From: Fodinisporobacter ferrooxydans
Lineage (GTDB): Bacteria > Bacillota > Bacilli > Tumebacillales > MYW30-H2
NCBI RefSeq assembly: GCF_022818495.1
Contig: NZ_CP089291.1
Coordinates: forward strand, 3,985,501-4,049,500
Direction: 5' to 3'
Length of the DNA: 64,000 bases
Within the stretch, counting starts at the first letter, position 1. Each line of letters starts with the position of its first letter. The notes below the pieces were generated by a model. It was not told the DNA's origin. It did not search any database and saw only the letters and a program-made list of their open reading frames with translations. The translations under genes and the position numbers were made by a program. Shown piece by piece: positions 6,778-60,265 of the stretch.

Positions 6778-6799
6778 CCTAGTTCTCTCTCCTTTTATT

Positions 6800-6940
6800 T
6801 GCCGACGAGGTTAGCTGACGGGTTCGGGTTGAGGATACACCCCTACACAGTCTGTGATTCACCCCAATGTGAGAATGTGTATGTATACATTCTGTAAAGA
6901 ATTCCCCCGCTCTTCTTTACAAACGGTTTTTAAAGAAGAT
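6800..6940 (-). promoter_or_regulatory. ydaO/yuaA-type c-di-AMP riboswitch
   Basis: The minus-strand leader of the LysM/3D gene contains the conserved core of the ydaO-yuaA class in the right order: GAGCGGGGGAA, TTGGGGTGAATC, a GTAGGGGTGTATCC segment, then CCCGAACCCGTCAGCTAACC and CTCGTCGGC close to the gene. In this class c-di-AMP binding stabilises a structure that switches off genes for wall hydrolases and potassium uptake. The aptamer ends about 22 bases before the GTG start. I see no separate strong terminator stem, so control may act through the 3' end of the aptamer and the ribosome binding site. Confidence 0.9.
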
Positions 6941-7030
6941 TTGGCATGAATAGAGTAACACGGAAACTATTTGGCAAAAAGGCAAAGATATTGGTTCCCT
7001 TGCCAGTTATTGTATCAGTACGAGAAGTTG

Positions 7031-57026: not shown

Positions 57027-57038
57027 GGGTTGGATGAA

Positions 57039-57488
57039 ATGAATCGAGCATCGAATGAAAACCATAAGGATATGGAGCAGGTAACAGAATTGCTCCATCA
57101 GCAAAATTTCCGGCTTACAAGAGAACGGGCGGCTGTTTTGGAGTTATTCATGCAAGCAGATCAAATGCTGACACCCATCCAGCTTTATGAATACGCTCAA
57201 AAAAATGGCGTCGAAATCGGATTGACCACAGTGTATCGGTTGCTTGAAGTATTGACGAAGGTTGGTCTTTGCTCACCATTTTTAGTAGACGGAGTGATTT
57301 ACTACACCTTTTGCATACGCCATCATCATCATCATTTTGTATGTTTGGCTTGCCAGAAAGTACAAGACATTTTTGAGTGTCCTTCCTTTCAAAACCTGAC
57401 GGAATATGGACAAATCAAATACCATAAAGCGGATATGTTCGGGTATTGTACGTCTTGCCAAAAGGATCATGAGGAGCAATTCCTGTAA
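57039..57488 (+). CDS. Fur-family metalloregulator (Zur/Fur-like)
   Basis: The 149-residue regulator starts at the ATG at 57039 behind AAAAGGG. The winged helix (about 10-85; FRLTRERAAVLELF, TPIQLYEYAQ, IGLTTVYRLLEVL) is canonical for Fur proteins. The dimerisation domain has a run of five His (RHHHHHFVCLACQ) and two CxxC motifs (CLAC and CTSC), the structural zinc site. The regulatory metal cannot be identified securely. The downstream metal-transporter gene hints at Ni, Co or Zn. The palindromic operator right upstream fits autoregulation. Confidence 0.93.
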   Translation: MNRASNENHKDMEQVTELLHQQNFRLTRERAAVLELFMQADQMLTPIQLYEYAQKNGVEIGLTTVYRLLEVLTKVGLCSPFLVDGVIYYTFCIRHHHHHFVCLACQKVQDIFECPSFQNLTEYGQIKYHKADMFGYCTSCQKDHEEQFL

Positions 57489-57583
57489 TGAAGTAATTTA
57501 AGCTTTGAACGAAAAAAGCACCTCTTGTATACTAGGAAACGTTCGACGCAGAACAATACCTACATACGAAAAGAGGCGCTCAC

Positions 57584-58882
57584 ATGAAGTATAAGACGAA
57601 GCAGAAACAGAATCAACGGATTACAAGAATTACCGAGAACACATTGGTGGTTGGAGCTGACATCGCAAAGAAGATACACGTAGCTCGAGCTGTGGATTTC
57701 CGTGGAATTGAGCTTGGGAAGGACTGTGTGTTTCACAACGACCAGGAAGGGCTGACGAAGCTGGCAGCGTGGATGAAGGAGCTTGGCCGAATTCATGAGA
57801 AAACAGACATTATATTCGGCATTGAACCGACTGGACACTACTGGTTCCCGTTAGCGGCGTTTTTGAAGGAGCAAGGCATTCAGGTTGTTGTTGTCAATCC
57901 GCATCATGTGAACAAGAGCAAGGAGCTCGAGGACAACTCACAGACCAAAAGCGACTACAAGGATGCAAAAGTCATTGCCGACCTCATTCGGAATGGAAAG
58001 TACTCAGAACCTAACTTACCGACCAAGGAATACGCAGAATTACGCATTCTGATGAATCTTCGCGAGAAGGTCATGGTGAGCTTGATTCAAGTGAAAACAC
58101 GGATCACAAACTGGTTTGACCGCTACTTTCCAGAGTATCCACAGGTATTTAAGGACTGGGAAGGGAAAGCGTCCCTCATGACCATGCGTCAGTTTCCAAC
58201 TCCAGAGGAGATTGTCTCCGTAGGCGCCAGAGGCGTTCTCTCACATTGGAAGACGGAAATCAAGCGTGGGGTGGGCATTAAGAGAGCGGAGCAGCTCTAT
58301 GCGACCGCAACGGCTTCCATCGGGCTTACCGAGGGACTGGCAGCGGCTCGAATCGAGCTGACTATCTTGCTGCAGCAGTACGATCTGTATGGCAAGCAGG
58401 AAGAAACCATTATGGCGCAAGTCTTGCAGATTCTTGAGAAGATCCCCGGAACTCGGCAGATGCTGAGCATCCCAGGGGTTGGTGTTCTGACCGTCGCCGG
58501 TTTCCTAGCGGAGGTTGGCGATCTCAACAACTATGATCACGGACAGCAAATCATCCGCTTGGCTGGACTGAATTTGACTGAGAATAGTTCTGGAAAACGG
58601 AAGGGGAAAACGGGGATCAGCAAGCGGGGTCGTTCTCGATTAAGAGGCATCTTGTTTCGCGCCATGCTACCGATGGTGGCCAAAAACGAAGAATTTAAAG
58701 AGCTGCACAAGTATTACACGACACGTAGTCAGAATCCGTTAAAAAAGAAGCAGTCGATCATCGCCTTATGTGGAAAACTGGTTCGCGTACTTTATACATT
58801 GGGGACAAAGCAGAAAGAGTATAACGCAAACGATGTACTGGGGCCAGTCCGACAAGCCCAGCTACAACAAAGTGCAGCATAA
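57584..58882 (+). CDS. IS110-family transposase (DEDD recombinase)
   Basis: The 432-residue transposase has the N-terminal RuvC-like DEDD domain with Asp26 (VVGADIAKK), Glu80 (FGIEPTGHYW), and Asp123 and Asp126 (SDYKDAKVI). The C-terminal Transposase_20 domain follows (LSIPGVGVLTVAGFLAEVGD, then GLNLTENSSGKRKGKTG), with the Ser used by the family in DNA cleavage. The frame is intact, so the element may be active. GAGG seven bases before the ATG lies inside an inverted repeat (57518-57526 with 57571-57579). This could hide the ribosome binding site and limit translation. Confidence 0.93.
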   Translation: MKYKTKQKQNQRITRITENTLVVGADIAKKIHVARAVDFRGIELGKDCVFHNDQEGLTKLAAWMKELGRIHEKTDIIFGIEPTGHYWFPLAAFLKEQGIQVVVVNPHHVNKSKELEDNSQTKSDYKDAKVIADLIRNGKYSEPNLPTKEYAELRILMNLREKVMVSLIQVKTRITNWFDRYFPEYPQVFKDWEGKASLMTMRQFPTPEEIVSVGARGVLSHWKTEIKRGVGIKRAEQLYATATASIGLTEGLAAARIELTILLQQYDLYGKQEETIMAQVLQILEKIPGTRQMLSIPGVGVLTVAGFLAEVGDLNNYDHGQQIIRLAGLNLTENSSGKRKGKTGISKRGRSRLRGILFRAMLPMVAKNEEFKELHKYYTTRSQNPLKKKQSIIALCGKLVRVLYTLGTKQKEYNANDVLGPVRQAQLQQSAA

Positions 58883-58933
58883 AATAAAAAATAGAACACG
58901 TATCAACAGCTTAGTATCTGGTTTTTAATAAAT

Positions 58934-58957
58934 GAAATATCCACAACTGGATATTTC
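58934..58957. repeat. Perfect hairpin downstream of the transposase gene
   Basis: GAAATATCCA and TGGATATTTC with a four-base CAAC loop, 50 bases after the stop codon. It may end the transposase transcript or be part of the right-end structure. Confidence 0.85.
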
Positions 58958-58984
58958 ACAAATTCAACATTATCAACAAACTGA

Positions 58985-59190
58985 AAACTCGATTATTCAG
59001 ATGTGCACAACTTTGACAACGGAAGCACCGGAGAAGCCGAAGGATTTTATCCATAAGGGCAACGACCCAGTCGAGGAGCAAGAATCGGCCTCCACCCCTT
59101 GAGAGGTAGAACGAAGGAATGTAAGGGCATAGACCCAGCGTGACATGGGAGGGTAAACCCCGAGGGAGAACGTGGAGATCCACTGTGCGA
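58985..59190 (+). ncRNA. Candidate IS110 bridge RNA (right-end noncoding RNA)
   Basis: This GC-richer, noncoding stretch carries a motif repeated 68 bases apart: TAAGGGCA, two variable bases, then GACCCAG (59054-59070 and 59122-59138). Each copy folds as a GGG/CCC hairpin. Other short stems include GGG-TAAA-CCC near 59150 and GTGGA-GA-TCCAC near 59175. Bridge RNAs of IS110-family elements have two similar loops that recognise target and donor DNA and are encoded in a noncoding end. Two related hairpins fit that plan. The exact ends and guide bases are not determined. Confidence 0.55.
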
Positions 59191-59204
59191 TCATACCATT
59201 TTAT

Positions 59205-59360
59205 CCACAGTTTGGAAATCAAGACTTTCAAGCCCTATTCCTGCCACCGGCTCTTACAGAAAAAAATGTATTGAATTCAATTTTCATCCAATATCCTCAA
59301 GGTGTCAAAGTTGTAAAACTAAGAATGAGCGAGAAAACAGGAGAAAACATTACTTTATAG
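59205..59360 (+). pseudogene. C-terminal fragment of an unrecognised gene next to the IS element
   Basis: An open frame continuing out of the IS right end ends with TAG at 59358-59360 and reads about 45 codons of protein-like sequence (ALFLPPALTEKNVLNS ... VKVVKLRMSEKTGENITL). It abuts the start of the metal-transporter gene, as in an operon. Its N-terminal part is absent; the IS element or an associated deletion appears to have removed it. I do not recognise the family. Confidence 0.5.
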
Positions 59361-59374
59361 TGGGAGGGATCGGT

Positions 59375-60265
59375 TTGTTGAACGTCTGGGATCCCCAACA
59401 TGTATCGGTTGGAATGGGATTATTGACTGCGTTTTTATTGGGATTGATTCACGGCATTACGCCTGATGAACATACATGGCCCATTACGTTTAGTTACGCA
59501 ATCGGCAGCCGAAGTACGCAAGGCGGCATGAAAGCAGGGTTCCTGTTTGCATTGGCATTTACGTTTCAACGGGCAATCGCTTCACAACTCGCGTTTTTTG
59601 CTTTGGTCGGCTTTCTATTCCATCCGAGTGCCGAAAATATCGTATATGGAGTCGTAGGCATTGTGATGGCGATTTCCGGATACTACATCCGCTTTCGCCA
59701 TAAGACCATTCACTTATTTCCCTGGTTGGAAAAATGGATGCCCAACCGCCCGGATTCGAATGAACCAATCCCCATAAAAATGCCTTTGATTCATGGAGTG
59801 ATTGCAGGCTGCGGGACAGGAGCTTTTGCTACGATCATTTACACAGTAATCGCCCCCGCAATGCCTTCAGCCTGGTTCGGGTTTGTTCCGGGACTTGTTT
59901 TTGGTATCGGCACTGTTTTTATGCAAACGTTGATCGGAGCTTTATTCGGCTGGTGGATGGAAAAATATCAAGTAAGCGCAAAAGCAAAGGCCTACATTGG
60001 CACAACGGTAGCAGGAAACACTCTTTTGTACGGTGGCGTCATGTTTGTCCTTGTGGGTCTCTTGGGATTGTTTTTGCCAGGCATTTCGGATTGGAGTATA
60101 GCGACAGGGATAAAAGTACACAATCTGGATTCCATTAATACAGGCCTTTTATTGTCGGTTTTTGTAGTGGCAGGTGTGGGGGGAATCTCTCTTTGGAGAG
60201 CAATGCGCTATATTCGATTTCATTCCAAGCAAGAAATGGATTTGGAAAATTCCCTGATGCCTTAG
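59375..60265 (+). CDS. NicO/UreH-like membrane transporter (nickel/cobalt-type)
   Basis: The 296-residue protein has about seven membrane helices. The segment LGLIHGITPDEHTWPITFSY in the first helix (core HGITPDEH) is the metal-binding HxxxxDH-type motif of NicO and UreH-like transporters. Further helices have GFLFALAFTFQRAIAS, and GLLLSVFVVAGVGG lies near the end. GGGAGGG stands 6 bases before TTG at 59375 and 9 before TTG at 59378, so either TTG may start. It overlaps the end of a gene fragment, indicating a former operon. The Fur-family gene beyond the IS element may once have controlled it. Confidence 0.75.
   Translation: MLNVWDPQHVSVGMGLLTAFLLGLIHGITPDEHTWPITFSYAIGSRSTQGGMKAGFLFALAFTFQRAIASQLAFFALVGFLFHPSAENIVYGVVGIVMAISGYYIRFRHKTIHLFPWLEKWMPNRPDSNEPIPIKMPLIHGVIAGCGTGAFATIIYTVIAPAMPSAWFGFVPGLVFGIGTVFMQTLIGALFGWWMEKYQVSAKAKAYIGTTVAGNTLLYGGVMFVLVGLLGLFLPGISDWSIATGIKVHNLDSINTGLLLSVFVVAGVGGISLWRAMRYIRFHSKQEMDLENSLMP

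What the first reader, a model, noticed from the sequence alone, without database searches (positions are those of the whole stretch)
58883..59205. Candidate bridge RNA in the right end of an IS110-family element
The transposase frame is intact and followed by about 320 noncoding bases, while the left region has only about 95. The right stretch holds the same hairpin motif twice (TAAGGGCA-NN-GACCCAG at 59054 and 59122) plus several small stems. IS110-family bridge RNAs carry two related loops that read target and donor DNA, so a duplicated hairpin in the longer noncoding end is what one would look for. The duplication and stems are seen directly; the RNA role is inferred.
Basis: partly seen in the sequence, partly recalled or inferred. 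Interest (0 to 1): 0.75.

Follow-up and report, generated by a model that had tools for sequence, protein, structure and literature searches.

The report
Bridge RNA aimed at ribosome-binding sites
The stretch encodes the guide RNA of a jumping gene of the IS110 family; its guide reads the start signal in front of bacterial genes (the ribosome-binding site), so the element inserts just ahead of genes and leaves that signal in place.

Summary
The finding holds up. An IS110-family element, window 57477-59366 (1890 bp), has 8 near-identical copies in this genome. Its right noncoding end holds a conserved ~180-nt RNA (59016-59195) with covarying stems and two loop modules, one for each copy of the duplicated hairpin. 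An unbiased RNA-versus-flank scan over about 150 copies puts the target guides in module 1. The left guide (59072-59078, CGAGGAG) reads the left flank. The right guide (59046-59052) pairs with the right flank. Module 2 matches the element's own ends. Guide and target change together across 24 distinct guides (class-level permutation 0/10,000), including two guide types in one Brevibacillus genome. An intact empty site shows scarless insertion without duplication. This is a bridge RNA (seekRNA) encoded in the right end, as in the IS1111 group, but with a 432-aa transposase of IS110-subgroup size. What seems unreported is the target: in this clade the guide copies a Shine-Dalgarno sequence. Copies sit in (A/G)AGG-AG|G, and the right end (GTGGGAG) rebuilds a Shine-Dalgarno at the original spacing. 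The tie to genes is explained by the motif itself (61% of sites versus 51% of all such motifs). Transcription and activity were not tested.

The parts
57477..59366 (+). IS110-family element, from after the left core AG to the right core AG (1890 bp)
   Evidence: 8 copies in the genome break off at these ends; empty-site logic confirmed for a homologous element
57471..57476 (+). left half of the target: GAG-G-AG of the interrupted Shine-Dalgarno sequence; 57475-57476 is the presumed AG core
   Evidence: left flank plus right flank gives CATGAGGAG|GGATCGGTTTGTTG, an SD ahead of a start codon that overlaps the stop codon of the upstream Fur-like gene
57505..57533 (+). promoter-like TTGAAC-N17-TATACT in the left end, reading towards the transposase and the RNA
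   Evidence: consensus match only; a similar motif is visible in relatives' left ends
57491..57497 (+). left subterminal repeat AAGTAAT
   Evidence: perfect 7-bp inverted match to 59349-59355 at a fixed register; AAGTAAT or AATTAAT in both ends of many relatives
57584..58882 (+). DEDD transposase/recombinase, 432 aa
   Evidence: PF01548, PF02371; NF033542 'IS110 family RNA-guided transposase' 227 bits against cut-off 140; matches IS621 8wt6, E 1.5e-11
59016..59195 (+). conserved bridge RNA (seekRNA), modelled part
   Evidence: 50-sequence alignment A1; 95.3% of pair cells paired, 115 two-sided changes against 32 in shuffles, 0/500; model R1 finds exactly the 8 copies in the own genome
59036..59040 (+). 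5' strand of the stem closing target module 1 (GCCGA), pairs with 59085-59089
   Evidence: helix 1: two-sided changes at 4 of 5 pairs
59046..59052 (+). [quoted passage not shown]
   Evidence: best complement diagonal of all RNA columns, flank +2..+6; 10-nt match in L199, 8 nt in L240 and L245
59055..59070 (+). hairpin 1 (AAGGGCAACGACCCAG), inside module 1
   Evidence: GGG/CCC to GAG/CUC and GGA/UCC in relatives (helix 2)
59072..59078 (+). [quoted passage not shown] pairs with its bottom strand
   Evidence: best identity diagonal of all RNA columns, flank -7..-3; 0/10,000 in class-level permutation
59085..59089 (+). 3' strand of the stem closing module 1 (TCGGC)
59092..59101 (+). 5' strand of the stem closing donor module 2 (CCAC, CCCTTG)
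   Evidence: pairs with 59172-59175 and 59161-59166; covariation helices 3-4
59116..59121 (+). right donor guide GGAATG, complementary to CATTCC/AATTCC at the left end of the element
   Evidence: GGAAT invariant in A1 and ATTCC present in the left ends examined; no covariation possible because nearly invariant
59123..59138 (+). hairpin 2 (AAGGGCATAGACCCAG), inside module 2
   Evidence: helix 6
59146..59151 (+). left donor guide TGGGAG, same as the right-end sequence TGGGAG
59172..59175 (+). 3' strand of the stem closing module 2 (GTGG)
   Evidence: helix 3
59349..59366 (+). right end: subterminal repeat ATTACTT (59349-59355) and terminal GTGGGAG with core AG (59365-59366); supplies GGGAG to the downstream gene

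Best explanation
59016-59195 encodes the bridge RNA (seekRNA) of the IS110-family element 57477-59366. Shown by sequence evidence: a conserved RNA with two loop modules. In module 1, a 5' guide (59046-59052) pairs with the right side of the target and a 3' guide (59072-59078) matches the left side. In module 2, a 5' guide (59116-59121) is complementary to the element's left end and a 3' guide (59146-59151) matches its right end. The left target guide is a Shine-Dalgarno mimic, so the element inserts into (A/G)AGG-AG|G in front of genes. Its right end (GTGGGAG) then joins the remaining G and the start codon, which rebuilds a Shine-Dalgarno at the old spacing. Inferred: the RNA is transcribed with the transposase from the left-end promoter, is bound by the DEDD recombinase, and bridges the circular donor junction (right end joined to left end) with the target during recombination at the AG core.
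For: Eight copies with clean ends, seven of them in SD-type sites. RNA structure with compensatory changes. Guide-target covariation: 24 distinct left guides over 124 sites, class-level permutation 576 matches against 375 (sd 45), 0/10,000; right guide 407 against 331 (sd 11), 0/2000. Unbiased scan picks the same two stretches as the top diagonals. Natural guide swap inside one genome (L162-L166 against L180-L182). Odd guides match odd targets: TATACGAG, CATACGAG, GGGGCAG, CGCTAAG, CTCCCGGAG. Intact empty site without duplication in a related species. Transposase homologous to the bridge-RNA recombinase IS621.
Against: No transcript data. The donor guides are nearly invariant, so their pairing is not supported by covariation. 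The right-guide match in this window's own copy is partial, and one of the 8 copies (L043) sits at TATGAG|A inside coding sequence. The association with gene starts is no stronger than expected from the motif.
Confidence: 0.94

Rival explanations
1. The conserved stretch is a structured RNA or DNA end needed for the transposase to bind the element, and target choice comes from protein-DNA contacts with the Shine-Dalgarno motif.
For: The stretch is far better conserved than the coding part (81% against 65% in distant copies) and lies close to the right end.
Against: The only RNA columns that track the left flank form one diagonal with base identity, and those tracking the right flank form one diagonal with complementarity. 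Copies in one genome with different guides sit at the matching different targets.
Confidence: 0.03
2. It is a bridge RNA, but the Shine-Dalgarno targeting is incidental: the guide simply recognises a common purine-rich motif, and rebuilding of the SD gives no selective advantage.
For: 61% of insertions precede an ORF start, but so do 51% of all A(A/G)GGAGG motifs in the same loci, against 12% of random positions. Relatives aim at other motifs, for example GGGGCAG|GTTAGTTGAA.
Against: SD guides are kept across many genera, with AGGAG nearly fixed while the three bases before it drift; the right end keeps GGGAG.
Confidence: 0.4
3. The repeated hairpin is a chance or attenuator-like feature of the transposase 3' end with no guide role.
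For: A 15-of-17 repeat arises in 2 of 40 shuffles.
Against: Both hairpins are conserved with compensatory changes in 50 homologues, and no terminator-like site was found in the element.
Confidence: 0.01

Closest known systems
IS1111-group elements with right-end bridge RNA/seekRNA (ISEc11, ISKpn4, ISPa11; PMC11187229, PMC11208160)
   Same: Long noncoding right end with the RNA downstream of tnp; top-strand match 5' of bottom-strand match in the target loop; 7-bp subterminal inverted repeat in this element; scarless insertion.
   Different: Transposase 432 aa instead of 330-350 aa; subterminal repeats lie further from the ends and are imperfect in many relatives; target is the Shine-Dalgarno sequence rather than attC, REP or a fixed site.
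IS621 / ISCro4 (IS110 group, bridge RNA in left end)
   Same: Homologous DEDD recombinase (8wt6 E 1.5e-11, 9t56 E 1.3e-9); RNA with a target loop and a donor loop, left and right guides in each. The core CT of IS621 (own knowledge) is the reverse complement of the AG inferred here.
   Different: RNA in the right end; guide order reversed within each loop; longer transposase; different target.
TIGR-Tas tandem-guide systems
   Same: Distant similarity of the C-terminal domain (NF052498, 27.7 bits, below its cut-off of 100).
   Different: No TIGR array; the element is a transposon with one RNA.

Membership tests
IS110 family (RNA-guided DEDD transposases) | DEDD N-terminal domain plus Transposase_20 C-terminal domain with the SG motif | tested here: met
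   PF01548 and PF02371, NF033542 above cut-off; GLNLTENSSG fits the G--P----SG spacing, with L in place of P (sequence)
IS110 family (RNA-guided DEDD transposases) | Scarless insertion into a specific site, no target duplication | tested here: met
   Copies' joined flanks; empty site of equal length in G034 for a homologous element
Bridge RNA / seekRNA | Conserved structured RNA in a noncoding end, with a target loop and a donor loop | tested here: met
Bridge RNA / seekRNA | Target loop guides covary with target DNA | tested here: met
Bridge RNA / seekRNA | Donor loop guides pair with the element's own ends | tested here: inconclusive
   Matches GGAATG/CATTCC and TGGGAG/TGGGAG are present but nearly invariant, so no covariation test was possible
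Bridge RNA / seekRNA | RNA is transcribed and co-purifies with the transposase | not testable with these tools
   No expression data
IS1111 group | RNA in the right end; top-strand match 5' of bottom-strand match | tested here: met
   Guides at 59046-59052 (complement) and 59072-59078 (identity); order compared with PMC11187229
IS1111 group | Subterminal inverted repeats of 7-17 bp | tested here: inconclusive
   Perfect 7 bp here (AAGTAAT), shorter or imperfect in many relatives
IS1111 group | Transposase of 330-350 aa | tested here: not met
   432 aa, in the 395-455 aa range given for the IS110 subgroup in PMC11187229; so not filed under IS1111

The most novel reading that the evidence does not exclude
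A whole clade of RNA-guided transposons in Bacillota carries a guide that mimics the Shine-Dalgarno sequence. It uses the ribosome-binding sites of the genome as a near-universal family of safe sites and repairs each site by carrying a Shine-Dalgarno in its right end, so downstream genes stay translated. Related lineages have switched guides to palindromic repeats or other motifs.
Probability: 0.55. Interest if true: 0.75.

Novelty: new member of a known kind. Interest (0 to 1): 0.6.

Why it matters
It adds a large, naturally varied set of right-end bridge RNAs (57 of 300 sampled genomes of the class) in which guide and target swaps can be read directly. Such a set is useful for working out guide rules and for finding recombinases with short, abundant targets. 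A mobile element that aims at ribosome-binding sites and restores them would also explain how such elements reach high copy number in gene-dense genomes with little harm, which can be tested by expression studies.

Tried and rejected
Rfam at gathering thresholds gave only a c-di-AMP riboswitch elsewhere in the window. A first structure pairing GGAG with CTCC (module 1) was dropped because it uses the same CC as the better supported CCAC/GTGG stem. The view that insertions favour gene starts beyond the motif was tested and rejected. A literature search for Shine-Dalgarno or ribosome-binding-site targeting by IS110/IS1111 elements found nothing relevant, but the library holds open-access papers only and ISfinder was not available. 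Some automatic left-end calls were wrong (L189, L209-L212, L253) and were left out of the statistics. Structure prediction was not used because the homology to IS621 was clear from sequence.

Full report
WHAT IS THERE. The transposase frame at 57584-58882 is intact (432 aa), has the two IS110-family domains, passes NCBI's model for 'IS110 family RNA-guided transposase' (227 bits, cut-off 140) and matches the solved IS621 and ISCro4 recombinases. The genome holds 8 copies, identical or 99% identical. Comparing them puts the shared stretch at about 57472-59367. Allowing for the AG that occurs at both ends, the element is 57477-59366. The right noncoding end is therefore about 483 bp and the left about 107 bp.

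THE REPEATED HAIRPIN. By itself a 15-of-17 repeat is only marginal (2 of 40 shuffles reach it). The strong evidence is conservation. In distant copies the 3' noncoding part aligns at 81% while the coding part is at 65%. In 50 homologues found through the protein the stretch 59016-59195 is conserved, and a structure with a stem closing module 1, a stem closing module 2 and one hairpin in each has 95.3% of cells paired (shuffled 86.6%) and 115 two-sided changes (shuffled 32, 0 of 500). Sliding the partners by 1-3 columns collapses the fit. A covariance model made from it finds exactly the 8 element copies in the own genome and hits 57 of 300 sampled genomes of the class.

TARGET SITES. In seven of the 8 copies the joined flanks give (A/G)AGG-AG|G, a Shine-Dalgarno sequence, and a start codon usually follows. 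In the window the joined flanks restore the end of a Fur-like gene whose stop codon overlaps the start of the next gene, with GAGGAGG in front of it. The eighth copy (L043) lies at TATGAG|A in coding sequence. The same site type is seen in Paenibacillus, Brevibacillus, Aneurinibacillus, Alicyclobacillus and Clostridia. For one Brevibacillus panacihumi copy (L074) a related genome, G034, has the uninterrupted site: 442 of 442 bases align at 98%, with AAAAAAAGGAGGAGAAGGAGAATG intact and no duplication.

GUIDES. I compared every RNA column with every flank position over about 150 copies. For the left flank the best of all diagonals is base identity between flank -7..-3 and window 59072-59076. For the right flank it is complementarity between flank +2..+6 and window 59050-59046. 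These are the two sides of module 1 around hairpin 1. Insertion sites are independent events, so the flank side is not confounded by relatedness of the elements. With 24 distinct left guides over 124 sites, reassigning guide classes never reached the observed agreement (0 of 10,000). For right guides ending in CC the register that includes the core G gives 407 matches against 331 (0 of 2000). Single cases are telling: TATACGAG (L105), CATACGAG (L102), GGGGCAG (L116), CGCTAAG (L223) and CTCCCGGAG (L254) each match their own left flank. L199 has a 10-nt right-guide match, and L240 and L245 have 8 nt. One Brevibacillus genome (G195) holds copies with guide CGAGGAG at ACGAGGAG sites and copies with AAAGGAG at AAAGGAG sites.

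DONOR SIDE. Module 2 has GGAATG on the 5' side of hairpin 2, complementary to the left end (C)ATTCC, and TGGGAG on the 3' side, equal to the right end TGGGAG. These are nearly invariant, so covariation cannot be tested; the role is inferred from position and from known bridge RNAs. The right ends examined finish in GGGAG or a close variant.

HOW IT PROBABLY WORKS. The left end has TTGAAC-N17-TATACT reading inwards, and no terminator-like site lies in the element, so transposase and RNA are probably one transcript. The recombinase would bind the RNA, module 2 would hold the circle junction (right end joined to left end), and module 1 would hold the target. Exchange at the AG core inserts the element without a scar. 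Transcription, processing, binding and catalysis are inferred. Because the right end brings GTGGGAG up to the remaining G and the start codon, a Shine-Dalgarno is rebuilt at the same spacing; whether that keeps translation going is untested.

CONTROL ON THE SHINE-DALGARNO CLAIM. Of 122 sites of this guide type, 75 (61%) are followed by a start codon and at least 40 open codons 4-13 nt after the core. Random positions give 12%, but all A(A/G)GGAGG motifs in the same loci give 51%. The guide mimics a Shine-Dalgarno; there is no sign of extra selection for real gene starts.

CLASSIFICATION. By PMC11187229 and PMC11208160, a right-end RNA with the top-strand match 5' of the bottom-strand match and a 7-bp subterminal repeat are IS1111 traits. 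The transposase length (432 aa) is that of the IS110 subgroup, some of which are reported to have a downstream noncoding region. I file it in the IS110 family with a right-end bridge RNA and leave the group open. I found no report of Shine-Dalgarno targeting by such elements, but the searched library is limited.

Noticed in passing
window 59219-59299: Between the RNA and the right end the 8 copies fall into two types (4 and 4) that differ at about 24 positions in 81 bp, although the rest of the element is almost identical; this looks like a swapped segment.
   Followed up: partly
window 59211-59240: A further possible hairpin (GTTTGGAAA..TTTCAAGC) follows the modelled RNA, and similar stems (GTTTTGGA..TCCTAAGC, GTCTGG..CAGGC) are visible in relatives; the RNA may extend further 3'.
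   Followed up: partly
window 59239-59252: AAGCCCTATTCCTG resembles the left end AG|CCATTCCTG, and similar text occurs at the same place in relatives; meaning unknown.
   Followed up: no
L116 and L205 right ends; L081, L048, L228 right flanks: Right end directly joined to left-end-like sequence (GAGGGAG|CATTCCTG), and repeated right-end remnants next to the right end: traces of tandem or nested events at the element's own SD-like end.
   Followed up: no
L115, L116, L119, L122, L123, L205, L236: Related elements target a palindrome-like repeat, about TTCAACTAACGGGGCAG|GTTAGTTGAA, in Cytobacillus and others, with matching left and right guides.
   Followed up: partly
window 57030-57488 and 59360-60265: The element splits an overlapping gene pair: a Fur-family regulator (its last codons and stop now come from the element) and a membrane protein with a weak DsbD_2 match.
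   Followed up: partly
window 6785-6956, minus strand: c-di-AMP riboswitch (RF00379, 76 bits).
   Followed up: no
window 57584-58882: The transposase C-terminal domain weakly matches the TIGR-Tas endonuclease model (27.7 bits, below cut-off).
   Followed up: no
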